From positions 1 to 53,997 of the forward strand of contig NZ_JASISV010000005.1 in the NCBI RefSeq assembly GCF_030063305.1: DNA of 53,997 nt. Reading direction: 5' to 3'. Numbering within the stretch: position 1 is the first letter of the stretch; every line of letters begins with the position of its first letter. Below are positions 595-53,314 of the stretch, one piece after another. The stretch is from Salinibacterium sp. G-O1. GTDB lineage: Bacteria; Actinomycetota; Actinomycetes; Actinomycetales; Microbacteriaceae. The notes below the pieces were generated by a model that worked only from the letters and a program-made list of their open reading frames with translations, searched no databases and was not told where the DNA came from. The translations under genes were made by a program, and so were the position numbers.

Positions 595-720
595 ATGGTG
601 CGCGTGTCGCGGCCCTGTGTTCGGGCCCGAGGCCTGGCTTTATTCGGCCTTGAGACTTCGGTCAGAATACGGACGTGCGATTTTCGCGCAAGCTGCTGCA
701 CTACCAGCGCCGTCCAAAAT

Positions 721-2433: not shown

Positions 2434-2585
2434 TTTTTTCGTCTGTCTGGCCGGTCATCGTAGTTCGCTACCGCACCTTCGCTTCGGGCTTTCGCGGCAT
2501 ATCCTCACGATGTTCCGGTATTCCACGACCCTTCACTTCGGTGCTTCCGCTCTCAATCGATGCTCTTGCCAGACAGGCAAAAAAA
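2434..2585 (+). promoter_or_regulatory. Structured leader 1, upstream of the dprA-like gene
   Basis: This is the first of four related leaders. The left arm TTTTTTCGTCTGTCTGGC (from 2434) is nearly complementary to the right arm GCCAGACAGGCAAAAAAA (2568-2585), so the ends of a stretch of about 150 nt can pair. The inside carries blocks shared with leaders 2 and 3: TAGTTCGCT, TTTCGCGGCATATCCT and CCGGTATTCCACGA. The A7 run lies just before the ribosome site of the next gene. It may act as an mRNA leader or as a single-strand promoter of the Frpo type; the role is inferred. Confidence 0.65.
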
Positions 2586-2609
2586 TCAGTTGACCAAGGG
2601 AGAAACACC

Positions 2610-3551
2610 ATGACCGACACCACCACCACCGAGCTGCAGGGCCTCGAGGATCTCACCGCGGATGCGATCGCACGCGCGACGCTGTCGTGCCTGCTCGAGC
2701 CTGGAGACACCGACGCCGGAAGACTGGTCACACAGTTAGGTGCCGCCGACGCGCTGCGGGCGATCCTCAACACCGACACCGACACTGACGACGACGAGAG
2801 CAACGGTGGCGGCGGTGCGGGTGTGCCGGAGCAGTTGCGGGCTCGTGCGCAGCACCGGTTCACGCCGGGCACTCTCGCGATGGCTTACCGTGCGGCGGCC
2901 CAGTTCGGGGCAACGCTGGTGACTCCGGAGCACCCGCACTGGCCCACCCGTATGAACGACCTCGGGGACGCCGCCCCGTTCGCCCTATGGGTGCGCGGAG
3001 ACAGCGAGATTCTGACCGATACCACCACCACGGCGATCGTCGGGGCGAGGGCGGCCACCGGGTACGGGGAGCACATCACGATGGACATCACCGCGGGGCT
3101 CGTCGCACGCGGGCACACGGTCGCGTCGGGTGCGGCGTATGGGATCGATGGGATGGCCCACCGGGCAGCCCTCGCCGCAGGGGGTCGCACCGTCGCCTAC
3201 CTTGCCGGGGGAGTGGACCGGTTCTACCCATCCGGCCACGACGCCCTCCTAACCCGCATCGTGGAGCAGGGTGCTGTCGTGTCCGAGTTGCCGTGCGGGG
3301 CGATGCCCACCCGCTGGCGGTTCCAAGCCCGAGGCCGCCTCATCGCCGCCAACAGCACCGCGGTGCTGGTCACCGAAGCCGGGTGGCGCTCGGGGTCGCT
3401 GAACACCGCCCACCACGCACAGGCTTTGGGGCGTGGGGTCGGGGCGGTGCCGGGGCCGGTGACCAGCGCCGCCAGCGCAGGATGCCACCGCCTCATCCGC
3501 GACCACCACGCCACCCTCATCACCTGCGCCGAGGAAGCAGCCGAACTGTAG
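2610..3551 (+). CDS. DprA/Smf-like DNA-processing protein, 313 aa
   Basis: DprA proteins bind single-stranded DNA and load RecA. This one has the DprA Rossmann-fold series in order: AIVGARAATGYGEH, then SGAAYGIDGMAHRAAL, AGGVDRFYPSGHDALL, VSELPCGAMPTRWRFQARGRLIAANS, EAGWRSGSLNTAHHA and VPGPVTS. I place the start at the ATG at 2610, after AAGGGAGAAA, because the open frame upstream of it covers the repeated leader. A plasmid copy next to ssb suggests a role in handling incoming single-stranded DNA during conjugation rather than natural transformation. No C-terminal winged helix follows the fold. Chromosomal DprA and plasmid DprA-like proteins share this core, so the exact activity is not certain. 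Confidence 0.88.
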   Translation: MTDTTTTELQGLEDLTADAIARATLSCLLEPGDTDAGRLVTQLGAADALRAILNTDTDTDDDESNGGGGAGVPEQLRARAQHRFTPGTLAMAYRAAAQFGATLVTPEHPHWPTRMNDLGDAAPFALWVRGDSEILTDTTTTAIVGARAATGYGEHITMDITAGLVARGHTVASGAAYGIDGMAHRAALAAGGRTVAYLAGGVDRFYPSGHDALLTRIVEQGAVVSELPCGAMPTRWRFQARGRLIAANSTAVLVTEAGWRSGSLNTAHHAQALGRGVGAVPGPVTSAASAGCHRLIRDHHATLITCAEEAAEL

Positions 3552-3681
3552 GGGCAGGGAGGCGGCGGCCGGCCTCCCGGGGCCGGCCGCTCGCCCCGGG
3601 CTCGTGCCTCACCAGGCGCGAGCGAGAAGACCAGGAAAGCGTGCGGAGCCGCCGGTGGCGGCGCTGACTGTTGAGAAGCCA

Positions 3682-3844
3682 TTTTTTCGTCTGTCTGGCC
3701 GGTCACCGTAGTTCGCTTGCGCACCTGACGTTTCGGGCTTTCGCGGCATATCCTCACGCGCTTCGCTTGCTCCGGTATTCCACGACCCTCACACTCTCGG
3801 TGCTTCCGCTCTCAATCGATGCTCTTGCCAGACAGGCAAAAAAA
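3682..3844 (+). promoter_or_regulatory. Structured leader 2, upstream of ssb
   Basis: This is close in sequence to leader 1 over its whole length, with small insertions inside. The left arm TTTTTTCGTCTGTCTGGC starts at 3682 and the right arm GCCAGACAGGCAAAAAAA is at 3827-3844. The internal blocks TAGTTCGCT, TTTCGCGGCATATCCTC and CCGGTATTCCACGA are kept, and the last block before the right arm (TGCTTCCGCTCTCAATCGAT) is identical to leader 1. The ssb ribosome site follows directly. Confidence 0.68.
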
Positions 3845-3870
3845 TCAGTTGAGCTAGAGGAGCAGAACCC

Positions 3871-4335
3871 ATGACCGACACCATCACCCTCACCGGGCTT
3901 GTCGCCACCACACCGAGGAAGATCACCACCAGCGAAGGGCTTGATATCGCCTCGTTCCGCCTCGCCAGTACCACCCGCCGTTACGACCGGGGCACGAGCC
4001 GTTGGGTGGACGGGGACACCAACTGGTACACCATCACCGCATTCCGTGGCTTGGCCTGCAACACCGCCGAGTCCATCGACAAAGGACAGCGGGTCATCGT
4101 CACCGGAGCCTTGCGGATCCGCGAATGGGAGAACGGGGAGAGAACCGGAACAAGCATCGAGGTGGAAGCCGACGCCATCGGCCACAACCTCACCTTCGGC
4201 ACCACCCAATTCACCCGCACACCCGCACCCGTCACCAGCGAACCAGAGCCTGCCGCGGAGGAGACAGGTATGGAGGAGACAGGCGTGGAGGAGGCGGATA
4301 TCGCCGAGCTGCGGGCGAAGCTCGCTGGCGAGTAA
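3871..4335 (+). CDS. ssb: Single-stranded DNA-binding protein, 154 aa
   Basis: This is a plasmid-encoded SSB with an N-terminal OB fold (residues 1-115): ITLTGLVATTPRKI, FRLASTTRRYDRG, the conserved NWYTITAFRGLACNTAESIDKGQRV and VTGALRIREWENGERTG. The tail is acidic and proline-rich (EPEPAAEETGMEETGVEEADIAEL), although the extreme C-terminus (KLAGE) is not the usual DDDIPF-type tip, so partner binding may differ from chromosomal SSB. The ATG follows AGAGGAGCAG. Many conjugative plasmids carry ssb in the leading region to coat the incoming strand. It is the middle gene of three that follow related leaders. Confidence 0.93.
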   Translation: MTDTITLTGLVATTPRKITTSEGLDIASFRLASTTRRYDRGTSRWVDGDTNWYTITAFRGLACNTAESIDKGQRVIVTGALRIREWENGERTGTSIEVEADAIGHNLTFGTTQFTRTPAPVTSEPEPAAEETGMEETGVEEADIAELRAKLAGE

Positions 4336-4762
4336 CCGACCTGGGTCGGCCTGCCCAGCAGGTCGGCCCACCAGGGGCGGCCCGCCCAAGGCAACAGCGC
4401 GCCGCCCGGCGCGGGAGGCGCTGTTGCTGGGTACGACGCTTGGCGCGTCCGGCGAGCCGGCCGCGCGGCGCATCATCGCCACGTACGCCCGGACGGGTGT
4501 CCGGTCTGATTCGCGCCCGCCGATGGCGGGGGAGCGGACCCCACCCAGGATTCGTGACGCTGACCAGCTCGTCGGTTCGGCGGCTGTCAACGATCATCGT
4601 GCCGCCGCTGGAGGGCAGGATCTCAGCGTCGAGCTCACCCGCGCACACCCGGCAGGGTGGCTCGGCAGGGTGGCCCCCGCCACGCGACAGCCCCATCAAT
4701 TCCCACGAGCGCCGACGATGGGGGAGTAGGCGGGAGCGTCGCAGGAACTCTCCCCAGCGCTT
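4336..4762. other. Gene-poor stretch between ssb and leader 3
   Basis: No convincing gene is seen. A perfect CCGACC/GGTCGG hairpin lies just after the ssb stop and could end its transcript. The minus strand holds an open frame (to 4699) with an early CRVCAGELDAE segment that resembles half of a zinc ribbon, but it has no ribosome site and degenerates into arginine-rich noise, so it may be a relic. Confidence 0.5.
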
Positions 4763-4901
4763 GCCTTCCGGAAGAGGCGATCTTAGTTCGCTGCGCGGCT
4801 TACGTTTCGACCTTTCGCGGCATATCCTTCGCTACGCTTCCGGTATTCCACGAGTCGCCACTTCACCGCTTCACTCGGGGCGACCTCTCTCGCCGGAAGG
4901 C
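4763..4901 (+). promoter_or_regulatory. Structured leader 3, upstream of the 55-aa CDSCQ gene
   Basis: The internal blocks TTAGTTCGCT, TTTCGCGGCATATCCTT and CCGGTATTCCACGA are shared with leaders 1 and 2. The terminal arms have a different sequence yet remain perfectly complementary: GCCTTCCGG at 4763-4771 and CCGGAAGGC at 4893-4901. Such exchange of both arms together is evidence that the pairing itself is selected. The A7 run of the other leaders is missing here. Confidence 0.65.
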
Positions 4902-4924
4902 ACACACCAGACAGGAGAGAGCAC

Positions 4925-5092
4925 ATGAACACCACCCACCAGAACCCCGCGATCATCGCCCAGGTCACCAAAACCGACCTCCACCCGGACGGGACCACCG
5001 AAACCACCGACAGCTACACGATCGCCTCCGTCGACGGGTACACCGTCCCCATCGACCCGATGGACAATCTCGAATGCGACAGCTGCCAATAA
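4925..5092 (+). CDS. Small CDSCQ-tailed protein, 55 aa (paralogue A)
   Basis: The ATG follows ACAGGAGAGAG. The protein has a polar core with an evident beta pattern (IIAQVTKTDLHPDGTTETTDSY) and ends in DPMDNLECDSCQ. A second protein of 59 aa at 31558-31737 shares the layout and the ending PxDPMDxLxCDSCQ, so the frame is under selection. The C-terminal CxxC could bind metal or be redox-active. Both paralogues lie in operons behind the related leaders, which suggests a shared early or transfer-linked role. No known family is recognised. Confidence 0.8.
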   Translation: MNTTHQNPAIIAQVTKTDLHPDGTTETTDSYTIASVDGYTVPIDPMDNLECDSCQ

Positions 5093-6596: not shown

Positions 6597-6780
6597 ACCC
6601 CGTCCTGTGCCCCTAAGCGCGCGCGGTCCAGGATTGTTTGTCTTGCGGGTAAGTCGACTCACTCAAGGTCGGACCTGGCATGGGTCTGCCCGAAAGACGT
6701 TCCCGTTACGAGCATCATCGAGTGCTCGAGAACGAAGTGCCCGATAGGCGATCGCTATTCGTGCGCGGTGAGCGGACCCC

Positions 6781-7053
6781 TCAGCGTCCGAACTTCCCGG
6801 TCGTGCGCTTGGACTCCCAACGGTCAAGCTGGTGCAGTTCCTCCCGTGAATGACCGACTGCCGACATGGCTTCCTTGATGCGGGGGAGCGAAAGACTTTC
6901 TGAGGCTGCGCTTTCAAGCAGCTTCGGCATCATCTCATCGGTCTGCCCATTCCGATCCCACCCGTTGTTGCCGATGAAGTGCAGCGTTTCGAGGAGATCG
7001 TGCTGTTCCTTGGTGAAGCCGATCCAAGAAAGATTCGCGGGCGGAGGCGTCAT
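6781..7053 (-). CDS. Conserved small protein, 90 aa (inverted duplicate A)
   Basis: This protein of unknown function has the core SWIGFTKEQHDLLETLHFIGNNGWDRNGQTDEMMPKLL and ends in LDRWESKRTTGKFGR. It is nearly identical to the 90-aa protein at 30040-30312 on the other strand. The similarity extends upstream (GCAGAATTGAGGCATGACG spans both starts) and downstream (GATCGCCTATCG), so a whole gene unit was duplicated. The charged, histidine-containing sequence is soluble. No catalytic motif is evident. Confidence 0.82.
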   Translation of the reverse strand: MTPPPANLSWIGFTKEQHDLLETLHFIGNNGWDRNGQTDEMMPKLLESAASESLSLPRIKEAMSAVGHSREELHQLDRWESKRTTGKFGR

Positions 7054-7280
7054 GCCTCAATTCTGCTACTCGCCCTTCTCGCCCGTTAGTCGATCGTCTA
7101 ACTAGCGTCTGCATAGCGCTCCCTGAGTGTTCCACTGTCTCATAACCAAAGTGCCTCGAAACCCATGGGATGCAACACAGTATTTGTAGTGTGTGCGCGG
7201 CGAGACCTCTTCTTTTCCTTGTGATTCGAGACGTAGCCGTAGCGGTGTACCTGCGGGGAGAAGGCTCACGATGGCTATCA

Positions 7281-29793: not shown

Positions 29794-30039
29794 CAGCCTG
29801 AGACCATGAGATGAGAACGCTCGGGGGTAAGGCCTTGCGCGTCGGTGGAGGCTCGCCTGTATCCGATAAGTATCCCCGTCATGACGGCAGTCTCACATAG
29901 CCCCCGGCCCCGGAACATATTTCGGACGGTTCTGACGGACCGTGCCGTGTCTCGCTATTCCTGGCGTGTAGATCGTGCGGGGGAGGGGCCGGCCAGCGAT
30001 CGACTAGCCGGCACTCAGGGGGAGCAGCAGAATTGAGGC

Positions 30040-30312
30040 ATGACGCCCCCGGCCGCGAATTTTTCTTGGATCGGTTTCACCGCGGAACAGCACGATCTTC
30101 TCGAAACGCTGCACTTCATCGGTAACAACGGGTGGGATCGGAATGGGCAGACCGAGGAAATGATGCCGCGGCTGCTTGAACGCGCAGCCGCAGAAAAGCT
30201 CTCACTCTCTCGCATCAAGGAAGCCATGTCGGCAGTGGGTCATTTACGGGAGGAACTGCATCAGCTTGATCGGTGGGAATCCAAACGCACGACCGGAAAG
30301 TTCGGCCGCTGA
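30040..30312 (+). CDS. Conserved small protein, 90 aa (inverted duplicate B)
   Basis: Nearly the same sequence as the 6781-7053 product, with about a dozen mostly conservative changes. The differences favour third codon positions and similar residues, so both copies appear to be under selection. The 45 bases before the start and a block after the stop (GATCGCCTATCG) are shared too. It lies at the right edge of the cargo. Confidence 0.82.
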   Translation: MTPPAANFSWIGFTAEQHDLLETLHFIGNNGWDRNGQTEEMMPRLLERAAAEKLSLSRIKEAMSAVGHLREELHQLDRWESKRTTGKFGR

Positions 30313-30375
30313 GGGATCGCCTATCGAGACTGCCCAGATCGCGCCCGACGTCGACCCCCGCTGACCGCTATTCAG

Positions 30376-30812: not shown

Positions 30813-30992
30813 TTGCTTTTCGTCTGAGGGATTATTCACTGCGGTGTACCAGCGTCAAGCCGTCGTCGCAGTTTCGGCAAAACTTCTTCCCCCGCTGCGC
30901 TCCGCCAGAACTTTGGCCTGCCAACCGTTCCTTGGGGCTTGACCCCGGCACCCCTTTCGTGAGGGCGGAACGACCGCCGAAAGGCAAAAAAA
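30813..30992 (+). promoter_or_regulatory. Structured leader 4, upstream of the LPD29 gene
   Basis: TTGCTTTTCG (30813-30822) can pair with CGAAAGGCAA (30978-30987) with one G-U pair. TTTTCGTCTG on the left and AGGCAAAAAAA (A7 at 30986-30992) on the right echo leaders 1 and 2. The interior differs from the other leaders, apart from its length and C-rich loops. The ribosome site GGAGGAGAG follows. Confidence 0.5.
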
Positions 30993-31006: not shown

Positions 31007-31561
31007 ATGACCGACTACATCAGTACCAAGGACACCGCCACGTTGGTTCGCGTGGCATTGAAGAGTGCATTTCCGGGCGTGAAGTTCAGTGTTCGGATGA
31101 GCACCGGCACCGCCTCCGCGTGGATGCGCGTGCGCTGGAGCGACGGCCCCACGACTCGCGACGTGGACGCGATCACCGCCCGCTACGAGGGCCGGAAGTT
31201 CAACAGCATGACCGACGGGTACGACGACGCCGGGAGCGTGCTCATCGCCGGGGAGGGCAACGACATGCCCCGCGAGATTCGTTATTGCTGCGACGGGATC
31301 AACACCCAACGCGACTACACCCCCGCCGGGTTCGCGGTCGCGCAGAAGATCATCAGCACCGACAGCGACCACAAAGACCTCACCATATTCTCCCCCGAGG
31401 GCGAGAAGATCGCCGGGGCGATCATGCCCGATTCGATCCACGCAAACGGCCACTACCACGACTACATTTACAGCCCCGAGGATCTCGCGCGGGTCATTCT
31501 TCACCACGTGAACCTCTGCACCGTCACCACGGCCAGCAACGAGAGAAAGGCGAAACAATGA
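31007..31561 (+). CDS. LPD29-domain protein, 184 aa
   Basis: KDTATLVRVALKSAFPGVKFSVRMSTGTASAWMRVRWSDGPTTRDVDAITARYEGRKFNSMTDGYDD is the LPD29 (large polyvalent protein associated) pattern, here as a small stand-alone protein. Such domains occur in plasmid and phage proteins delivered with or acting on incoming DNA. The ATG follows GGAGGAGAG. Its TGA overlaps the ATG of the CDSCQ gene (ATGA). It sits within 3 kb of the probable oriT and reads toward it. Confidence 0.82.
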   Translation: MTDYISTKDTATLVRVALKSAFPGVKFSVRMSTGTASAWMRVRWSDGPTTRDVDAITARYEGRKFNSMTDGYDDAGSVLIAGEGNDMPREIRYCCDGINTQRDYTPAGFAVAQKIISTDSDHKDLTIFSPEGEKIAGAIMPDSIHANGHYHDYIYSPEDLARVILHHVNLCTVTTASNERKAKQ

Positions 31562-31737
31562 CCGACAACACGAATACCGCACGCGCGGTCGTGTCGATCG
31601 TCGCCCAAGTGTCGAAGATCGATCTTTACGAGGACGGCGCGACTAAGACCACCGGGGGCTATCCGGTCGCCGCGATCGAGGGTTACATCGTGCCCAGCGA
31701 TCCAATGGACGACTTACAGTGCGACAGCTGCCAGTAA
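31558..31737 (+). CDS. Small CDSCQ-tailed protein, 59 aa (paralogue B)
   Basis: Starts MTDNTNTARAVVSIVAQVSKIDLYEDGATKTTGGYPVAAIEGYIVPSDP and ends MDDLQCDSCQ. It aligns along its whole length with the 55-aa protein at 4925-5092 (IIAQVTKTDL versus SIVAQVSKIDL, and the shared PxDPMDxLxCDSCQ end). Translationally coupled to the LPD29 gene. The strictly kept C-terminal CxxCQ suggests metal binding or attachment chemistry. Confidence 0.83.
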   Translation: MTDNTNTARAVVSIVAQVSKIDLYEDGATKTTGGYPVAAIEGYIVPSDPMDDLQCDSCQ

Positions 31738-31741
31738 CAAC

Positions 31742-31779
31742 CGTGAGCAGCTGAACCAAATTTGGTTCAGCTGCTCACG
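31742..31779. terminator. Perfect 38-bp palindrome, bidirectional terminator
   Basis: CGTGAGCAGCTGAACCAAA is followed at once by its exact reverse complement, centred between 31760 and 31761. It lies between two convergent genes and even contains the stop codon of the minus-strand hydrolase gene. AAA/TTT at the centre gives a tight loop. Confidence 0.85.
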
Positions 31780-53113: not shown

Positions 53114-53291
53114 GGCCGTGAAGCCTTCGGCAGCATACGGTCGGCAGGCCTCCGCGCAAGCAGCTGCGCTGCCAGGTCCGCCGACAAGTGCGGCACGCGG
53201 TCGCATGCTCCCTTATTTCGCGCCGCACTTCTCTCCCCACCGCCCTGGCGGGTTGCACTACGACCAGCTCTCCCTAGCGGCGGTTACCCGC

Positions 53292-53314
53292 CTTCACGGC
53301 AAAAAAACGTGAAG
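53292..53314 (+). promoter_or_regulatory. A7-loop hairpin before the 215-aa gene
   Basis: CTTCACG (53292-53298) and CGTGAAG (53308-53314) enclose GCAAAAAAA, so the GGCAAAAAAA box found before dprA, ssb and the LPD29 gene appears here in a hairpin loop. The ribosome site AGAGAGGGAGAAG follows at once. The long-range arms and inner blocks of leaders 1-3 are not seen. Confidence 0.5.

What the first reader, a model, noticed from the sequence alone, without database searches (positions are those of the whole stretch)
2434..4901. Family of structured leaders with co-varying arms in front of dprA, ssb and CDSCQ genes
Three regions of about 140-165 nt share the blocks TAGTTCGCT, TTTCGCGGCATATCCT and CCGGTATTCCACGA, and their ends pair. 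In leaders 1 and 2 the arms are CTGTCTGGC/GCCAGACAG; in leader 3 both arms changed to GCCTTCCGG/CCGGAAGGC and still pair. A fourth, looser copy precedes the LPD29 gene (30813-30992), and the A7 box also precedes the 215-aa gene. All these genes read toward the probable oriT, the orientation expected if the transferred strand is the template. This fits single-strand promoters like F-plasmid Frpo, which express ssb and anti-defence genes before the second strand is made; none is known to me from actinobacteria. A repeated riboregulator is the alternative.
Basis: partly seen in the sequence, partly recalled or inferred. Interest (0 to 1): 0.88.

Follow-up and report, generated by a model that had tools for sequence, protein, structure and literature searches.

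The report
Folded single-strand promoters before plasmid genes
Short DNA segments in front of protective genes on this bacterial plasmid look like promoters that form only when one incoming DNA strand folds on itself, and the same folded signal turns up in plasmids of very different bacteria and in thread-like phages.

Summary
In detail: three leaders (about 2434-2587, 3680-3845, 4760-4905) share an identical core and outer arms that changed together.

The core TTTCGCGGCATATCC-N-GGTATTCCACG occurs in Actinobacteria, Bacillota and Proteobacteria, in plasmid NR1, one base pair changed in F and ColIb-P9, and in 27 IMG/VR contigs, 12 with a filamentous-phage Zot match.

Four lines of evidence say that the genes' template strand folds:
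- In gene sense, the P2 stem has 50 A.C and 8 G.T mismatches.
- The element is antisense to Zot in 10 of those 12 records (2 ambiguous).
- A -10 box TANNNT sits at a fixed place on the folded strand's 3' arm in 70 of 144 flanks (other flank: 2 of 144).
- Gene-directed -10 boxes are nearly absent: 1 against 27.7 expected (42 leaders).

I read the leaders as single-strand promoters that work like Frpo, without detectable Frpo homology.

Against: 10 of 43 scorable copies (window and relatives) have the wrong strand relative to the relaxase, a microvirus copy is reversed, nic is unmapped, nothing was assayed.

Leader 4 and the leader before the 215-aa gene have the promoter shell without this core; the latter carries a second conserved core.

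The parts
2434..2587 (+). Leader 1 (before dprA). T-run 2434-2439, P1 arms 2443-2451/2568-2576, A7 box 2579-2585. The folded strand is the - strand
2490..2527 (+). Core of leader 1: TTTCGCGGCATATCC (2490-2504) and GGTATTCCACG (2517-2527)
   Evidence: R1 45.4 bits, E 3.4e-10
2457..2462 (-). Predicted -10 of leader 1, TACGAT on the folded strand
3680..3845 (+). Leader 2 (before ssb). P1 arms 3691-3699/3827-3835, core 3739-3753 and 3774-3784
   Evidence: R1 57.1 bits, E 1.7e-13
3705..3710 (-). Predicted -10 of leader 2, TACGGT on the folded strand
4760..4905 (+). Leader 3 (before CDSCQ gene 1). P1 arms 4763-4771/4893-4901 (changed pair), core 4813-4827 and 4842-4852
   Evidence: R1 43.4 bits, E 1.3e-9
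4780..4785 (-). Predicted -10 of leader 3, TAAGAT on the folded strand
30813..30987 (+). Leader 4 (before LPD29/CDSCQ2): promoter shell without the core. P1 30813-30824/30976-30987, P2 30854-30861/30936-30943, on - strand TTGACG (30853-30858) N16 AATAAT (30831-30836), A7 box
   Evidence: sequence, read by eye; no core by R1
53115..53300 (+). Leader before the 215-aa gene: type-B shell. P1 53115-53125/53290-53300, on - strand TTGCGC (53154-53159) N16 TATGCT (53132-53137), with second core about 53192-53224
640..700 (+). Half of a type-B shell (TTGCGC and TATTCT on - strand) upstream of parA; no convincing partner arm
   Evidence: by reading
2610..3551 (+). dprA-like gene
   Evidence: PF02481 E 1.9e-63
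3871..4335 (+). ssb-like gene
   Evidence: PF00436 E 6e-18
4925..5092 (+). CDSCQ gene 1, 55 aa
   Evidence: no Pfam family
31007..31561 (+). LPD29 gene
   Evidence: PF18847 E 1.6e-27
31558..31737 (+). CDSCQ gene 2, 59 aa
33846..36983 (+). TrwC-type relaxase with helicase domains; oriT presumed just upstream of it
   Evidence: PF08751 E 5.3e-33; oriT inferred from position only

Best explanation
The leaders are single-strand DNA promoters. During transfer the - strand of the window (template of all these genes, presumed transferred strand) folds each leader into a long hairpin: apical loop, conserved core with a bulged A and mismatches, P2 stem, an open -10 bubble, and P1. The 3' arm supplies a -35-like box and a TANNNT -10 as the non-template strand; the 5' arm is the template. 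Host RNA polymerase can then start near P1 and run into dprA, ssb and CDSCQ1, whose start codons follow P1 by 23-35 nt. In double-stranded DNA the same boxes point away from the genes, so expression would be brief and limited to newly entered DNA; the transcript could also prime second-strand synthesis. The same core would serve filamentous phages and rolling-circle plasmids as a complementary-strand start signal. Shown here: sequence, distribution, covariation, which strand folds, position and direction of the -10. Inferred: RNA polymerase as reader, entry of this strand, transient expression, priming, and the role in phages.
For: Covariation: 58 representatives, 92.0% of cells paired vs 74.0% shuffled, score 0.431 vs 0.128 shuffled and at most 0.078 slid (the representatives were chosen for a good P2 and an exact core). 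Outer stem P1: 30 leaders, e.g. one pair GC 15/UA 15. Strand that folds: over 96 unique well-paired arm pairs A.C 50, G.T 8, where shuffled arms give 113 and 90; apical stems A.C 46, G.T 12. A.C exceeds G.T in all five taxon groups. Phages: element opposite to Zot in 10 of 12 records with a Zot match, 2 ambiguous, 15 of 27 records without a match. -10: 70 of 144 unique flanks vs 2 of 144 on the other flank vs 5.1 shuffled; 15 of 48 flank clusters vs 1 vs 2.3. Gene-directed -10: 1 vs 27.7 expected in 42 leaders. Downstream ORFs, 42 scanned: ParB_N 5, DNA methylase 4, DUF932 3, ArdC 2, SSB 2, DprA 1, besides transposases and others. Same element upstream of a DNA methylase in F, NR1 and ColIb-P9; in F, two other elements, Frpo1 and Frpo2, were shown to be required for early expression of downstream genes (PMC9849209, passages).
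Against: No assay. 10 of 43 scorable copies lie on the same strand as the nearest relaxase gene; on three multi-copy contigs this is the copy 0.9-1.4 kb from the relaxase. The microvirus copy is gene-sense, opposite to the prediction. 74 of 144 flanks have no TANNNT at the fixed place; the joint two-box score barely differs between flanks (6.88 vs 6.63 of 12; shuffled 5.39), so the -35 part is weak evidence. DNA folding energies are modest (- strand z -1.49, -0.95, -2.29; + strand -0.94, 0.39, -1.54). In many Lachnospiraceae loci the element lies behind transposase-like genes, not before establishment genes. The MobV plasmid copy points with mobV and lies upstream of an oriT-like site (motif recalled), which does not fit the simple transfer-strand rule. 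The cluster-level wobble excess is smaller (16 vs 6 in 27 clusters). The core's invariance in my alignments is by construction, since instances were found by an exact core pattern.
Confidence: 0.8

Rival explanations
1. The core is a priming or primosome-assembly site (ssi/pas type, read by DnaG or PriA) that only starts second-strand synthesis; the nearby genes are expressed in some other way.
For: The core occurs letter for letter across phyla and in small phages and rolling-circle plasmids that need priming and not gene expression. It is swappable: leader 4 and the type-B leader lack it.
Against: A -10 box lies at a fixed distance from the core in several taxon groups. Actinobacterial leaders abut start codons and have almost no gene-directed -10 box of their own. 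Shells without this core keep the -35/-10 spacing (by reading).
Confidence: 0.12
2. The leaders are mRNA leaders: a repeated riboregulator.
For: They end just before start codons, and the arms pair.
Against: If the RNA folded, G.U pairs would be tolerated in gene sense; instead A.C exceeds G.T 50 to 8. The element is antisense to Zot in phages. No Rfam family reaches its gathering score.
Confidence: 0.03
3. The conserved boxes are an ordinary double-strand promoter pointing the other way, driving a leftward transcript; the inverted repeat is a regulator site.
For: TTGAC-like and TANNNT boxes are on that strand. In phages this strand is the gene-sense strand.
Against: Leftward transcription in the window would run antisense to the preceding + strand genes. 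Pairing of both P1 and P2 with covariation over about 150 nt is not needed for a duplex promoter.
Confidence: 0.03
4. A recombination, packaging or partition signal that is recognised as a cruciform or as folded single strand by a plasmid protein.
For: Conserved core of unknown reader; association with transposase-like genes in Lachnospiraceae.
Against: The contexts seen (inovirus-like contigs, MOBF and MOBP plasmids, transposase loci) suggest no common plasmid protein, though I did not search for one; the -10 position is unexplained.
Confidence: 0.02

Closest known systems
Frpo1/Frpo2 of plasmid F and ssi2/ssi3 of ColIb-P9 (Masai and Arai 1997, not seen, cited in papers; Couturier 2023 PMC9849209, passages seen)
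   Same: Leading region, hairpin on the transferred strand, -10/-35 rebuilt in the fold, in front of ssb and other leading genes
   Different: No detectable homology by model R1: in the 22-kb F stretch one strong hit, at 53998-54071 before a DNA methylase (E 3.1e-17), and nothing else better than E 0.33. This family reaches Actinobacteria, Bacillota and phages. Folds were not compared directly
Single-strand origins (ssoA, ssoU, ICEBs1 sso1; PMC4595007, passages seen)
   Same: Orientation-specific element on single strands of rolling-circle plasmids and ICEs; the passages mention RNA-polymerase-sso interactions
   Different: No sso was compared by sequence here; the passages I read do not describe sso as promoters for downstream genes
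Complementary-strand origins of filamentous phages
   Same: The element lies on the virion (gene-sense) strand in inovirus-like contigs
   Different: Not found in M13 or Pf1 (nothing better than E 6.5)
EGeRS1 of pLS20-family plasmids (PMC8708921, passages seen)
   Same: Structured repeats before establishment genes of a Gram-positive conjugative plasmid
   Different: 400-600 bp; its authors judge a single-strand promoter highly unlikely, on length, lack of an identifiable promoter, and the nicked strand (the passage was cut before that argument ended)

Membership tests
Frpo/ssi single-strand promoters | Stands before establishment or anti-defence genes | tested here: met
   Window: dprA, ssb. 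Of 42 scanned downstream ORFs: ParB_N 5, DNA methylase 4, DUF932 3, ArdC 2, SSB 2, DprA 1; also transposases and others
Frpo/ssi single-strand promoters | Folded strand is the strand that also templates the relaxase gene (proxy for the transferred strand) | tested here: met
   Window 3 of 3; window and relatives together 33 of 43 within 60 kb, 10 exceptions
Frpo/ssi single-strand promoters | Nic site and transferred strand mapped so that the leader enters as template | not testable with these tools
   oriT placed only by position next to the relaxase gene
Frpo/ssi single-strand promoters | Folded strand rebuilds a promoter | tested here: met
   Covariation and a -10 at a fixed place on the 3' arm in 70 of 144 flanks; the -35 box is weaker evidence
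Frpo/ssi single-strand promoters | Sequence homology to Frpo1/Frpo2 | tested here: not met
   R1 with filters off on the F leading region: one strong hit at 53998-54071, others no better than E 0.33. So it works like Frpo but is not shown to be of that sequence family
Frpo/ssi single-strand promoters | RNA polymerase transcribes it as single strand and not as duplex | not testable with these tools
   needs in vitro transcription
Inovirus complementary-strand origin | Active fold on the virion (gene-sense) strand | tested here: met
   10 of 12 Zot-bearing records, 2 ambiguous; function not tested
RCR plasmid sso | Known conserved sso sequence blocks | not tested
   no sso sequence was compared
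Structured mRNA leader / riboswitch | The RNA-sense strand folds (G.U tolerated in gene sense) | tested here: not met
   A.C 50 vs G.T 8 in gene sense
Structured mRNA leader / riboswitch | Match to a curated RNA family | tested here: not met
   No Rfam 15 match at gathering in the window and ten related loci; two chance-level matches off the leaders at E 2.8 and 3.6

The most novel reading that the evidence does not exclude
There is a widespread bacterial single-strand DNA signal, a strongly conserved core of about 26 bases, used alike by filamentous phages, rolling-circle plasmids and conjugative plasmids. In conjugative plasmids it is set into promoter shells whose boxes point away from the gene in duplex DNA and toward it only when the entering strand folds, so these genes are expressed only while DNA is single-stranded. 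Cores can be exchanged for a second type within one shell, so an as yet unnamed, widely conserved host factor reads the core. The minority copies on the retained strand next to oriT may be expressed in the donor during transfer.
Probability: 0.35. Interest if true: 0.93.

Novelty: new variant of a known kind. Interest (0 to 1): 0.86.

Why it matters
In the passages I read, single-strand promoters are searched for by similarity to five known Frpo/ssi sequences and by boxes plus fold in a few islands (PMC11541004), and a Gram-positive candidate was argued against (PMC8708921). A family with a strongly conserved core, traceable from Actinobacteria to plasmid F and to phages, would give a handle for finding early-expressed anti-defence genes in many more plasmids. 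It makes an open question directly testable: how do Gram-positive conjugative plasmids express protection before the second strand exists? It also gives plasmid F a further candidate element besides Frpo1 and Frpo2, and a testable link between phage replication origins and plasmid gene expression.

Tried and rejected
Rfam search for a known RNA family: nothing at gathering, chance-level only at E up to 10. Full-text search for core strings: nothing for the 15-base core; 32 papers held at least one of four other strings, 20 listed, judged by title to be primers in unrelated work, none opened.

I first took the right-hand TTGAC arm in gene sense as a -35 with a -10 further right; the columns showed no -10. 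The box is on the other strand's 3' arm.

Leader 4 as a core member: rejected. Individual folding energies are not persuasive. M13 and Pf1: no match better than E 6.5. Second core, strict form, in viral contigs: 0. Prevalence across the phylum: 1 of 296 genomes, the own one (stricter filters; 17 candidates scored per genome).
Full report
WHAT IS THERE. The window looks like a circular plasmid: its first and last 127 bases are identical. Three leaders precede genes for DprA, SSB and a 55-aa protein. Each has, in gene sense, an outer arm (P1), a box that holds TAG, the core TTTCGCGGCATATCC-loop-GGTATTCCACG, the second outer arm, and a start codon 23-35 nt later; leaders 1 and 2 also have a T-run before P1 and an A-run behind it.

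HOW FAR IT REACHES. BLAST of leader 1 gave 135 plasmid records (40 listed): actinobacterial plasmids first and then, over the core alone, plasmids of Arsenophonus, Pseudomonas, Escherichia, Vibrio, Pasteurella and Providencia. By record titles the former come from Microbacteriaceae and other Actinobacteria, Lachnospiraceae and Bacillales, alpha-, beta- and gammaproteobacteria, a Desulfovibrio MAG and one MAG labelled Bacteroidia. Some labels may reflect contamination. The own genome has only the three window copies; 28 of 199 genomes of its family, the own one included, have a match, but no other of 296 sampled genomes of the phylum. That patchiness fits mobile elements.

IT IS A STRUCTURE. 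I extracted 165 distinct instances from 145 sources, all by the exact core pattern, so the core is invariant in these sets by construction. Of 162 that could be scored, 139 have a good P2 stem beside the core. An alignment of 58 representatives, chosen for a 2-base spacer and a good P2, has 92.0% of cells paired against 74.0% when partners are shuffled, and a covariation score of 0.431 against 0.128 shuffled and at most 0.078 slid. The choice by P2 quality inflates the paired percentage; all ten P2 pairs have changes on both sides. In 30 full-length actinobacterial leaders the outer stem covaries too, and the region of the -10 box is left open in the consensus. In F and ColIb-P9, found by the covariance model R1, one core pair itself changed on both sides.

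WHICH STRAND FOLDS. A G.T wobble on one strand reads as A.C on the other. Scoring both kinds alike, 96 unique well-paired arm pairs give 50 A.C and 8 G.T in gene sense; shuffled arms give 113 and 90; apical stems give 46 and 12. By group: Actinobacteria 25/5, Clostridia 10/1, other Bacillota 3/1, Proteobacteria and others 4/0, viral contigs 8/1. Reduced to 27 clusters it is 16/6. So the strand complementary to the mRNA folds. Independently, in filamentous phages the strand that exists single-stranded is the gene-sense strand (established knowledge), so the element should be antisense to phage genes. Among 27 IMG/VR records 12 have a Zot match; in 10 the element is on the opposite strand; two are ambiguous (one with Zots on both strands; one 80-kb contig whose Zot is 73 kb away on the same strand). 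A RepL plasmid of Vibrio agrees. A microvirus record disagrees.

WHERE THE PROMOTER IS. On the folded strand, reading on from the core's ...GCGAAA, a TANNNT hexamer begins 24-28 bases later in 70 of 144 unique flanks; the opposite flank has 2 of 144 and base shuffling gives 5.1. Among 48 flank clusters it is 15, 1 and 2.3. The window's are TACGAT, TACGGT and TAAGAT. Examples elsewhere, by reading: TTGCGC-16-TATGCT in type-B leaders, TTGACG-16-TACGCT in a Desulfovibrio MAG, TTGATG-16-TACACT in Paenibacillus. The joint two-box score does not separate the flanks well (6.88 against 6.63 of 12; shuffled 5.39), perhaps because the P2 arms are inverted repeats. This geometry means that in duplex DNA the boxes point away from the gene, and only in the hairpin, where the 5' arm is the template, do they point at it. 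The gene-directed strand of 42 actinobacterial leaders holds 1 TANNNT in 95 bases each where base shuffling gives 27.7.

SHELL AND CORE ARE SEPARATE. Leader 4 has no core but has P1, P2, TTGACG-16-AATAAT and the A7 box (by reading). The leader before the 215-aa gene aligns with type-B shells and carries another core with CTCCCTTATTTCGC. That second core fills shells in a Mycetocola plasmid before ParB, ArdC and DUF3846 genes, and a shorter form ending CTTATTTCGCCC stands before its DprA and NrdH genes. The 14-base string is in 6 of 173 loci held. A BLAST query with shell and second core hits 64 plasmid records, 25 listed, some matching mainly the second core and some mainly the shell. Its strict form was in no viral contig.

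GENES SERVED. A script took, for non-viral instances, same-sense ORFs of at least 150 aa starting near the core: 42, two of which I replaced by the window's dprA and ssb ORFs. Pfam matches at E 1e-5: ParB_N 5, N6_N4 methylase 4, DUF932 3, ArdC 2, SSB 2, IS110-type transposase 2, and one each of DprA, Mob_Pre, an ISL3 transposase and others. Many of the 42 have no match and some are probably spurious in GC-rich DNA. In F, NR1 and ColIb-P9, and in Aeromonas and Burkholderia plasmids, the element stands before a DNA methylase. A paper on such methylases speaks of an Frpo upstream of ecoGIXM in pESBL (PMC7736820, passages); I could not tell whether it means this element.

POLARITY. The model wants the folded strand to be the transferred one. 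Taking the relaxase operon's template strand as proxy (recalled from F, R388 and RP4), the window fits 3 of 3. Of 67 copies in 28 genomes (window included), 43 lie within 60 kb of a PF03432 or PF08751 match on the same contig: 33 fit, 10 do not. On three multi-copy contigs the misfit is the copy 0.9-1.4 kb from the relaxase. In the Mycetocola, pTZC1 and Cryobacterium records the leaders share the relaxase gene's strand, as wanted, except one Cryobacterium copy before a glutaredoxin gene. The Herbiconiux plasmid has copies on both strands and no annotated relaxase; of the Microbacterium plasmid I saw 50 of 72 kb, two copies on one strand and no relaxase.

MECHANISM. I think host RNA polymerase reads the folded strand, as for Frpo in F (PMC9849209, passages). 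What the core does is open: if the -10 is right, it lies upstream of the -35 region, and its conservation suggests a conserved reader.

NOVELTY. Known kind (single-strand promoter), new family by sequence, new phyla, and a core shared with phages. Papers seen: passages of PMC11541004, PMC9849209, PMC7736820, PMC4595007 and PMC8708921; listings otherwise. Subscription papers, including Masai and Arai 1997, were not readable here, so earlier notice of the F element cannot be excluded.

Noticed in passing
L016, L025, L028, L034, L042, L075, L081, L082 and others (Lachnospiraceae): The element sits 3-41 nt from the stop codon of a DDE transposase-like gene (of 30 convergent ORFs scanned, 17 match rve_3 and 16 DDE_Tnp_IS240). 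Why such a locus would carry a single-strand promoter or origin is unexplained.
   Followed up: partly
window 6775-7096 and 29997-30318: 322-nt inverted repeat, 88% complementary, flanking a 23-kb region that separates leaders 1-3 from leader 4; it may be a cargo insertion that split the leading region.
   Followed up: no
window 4925-5092 and 31558-31737: Two similar small proteins of 55 and 59 aa, both ending in CDSCQ, one directly behind a leader and one behind the LPD29 gene that follows leader 4; no Pfam family.
   Followed up: no
L022, L053, L125, L052: Some type-A leaders are followed not by a nearby start codon but by a shared stretch with GGTCTGGGACTGGCTG; in L053 and L063 two copies lie in opposite orientation.
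   Followed up: no
L152 3165-3362 and MobV plasmids (L009, L010): An IMG/VR contig with Zot and a replication protein shares 198 bp at 99% identity with E. coli and Vibrio plasmids; the stretch holds the element and is near-identical in the MobV plasmids.
   Followed up: partly
L074, L089: Contigs labelled Vibrio cholerae 35D carry a flank of the type otherwise seen in Arthrobacter loci; possibly contamination of the assembly.
   Followed up: no
window 31742-31779: Perfect 19-bp inverted repeat with no loop right behind CDSCQ gene 2; possible terminator or protein site.
   Followed up: no
L165 5999-6072 (F plasmid 53998-54071): Further candidate single-strand element in F besides Frpo1 and Frpo2, with a compensated core pair.
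   Followed up: partly
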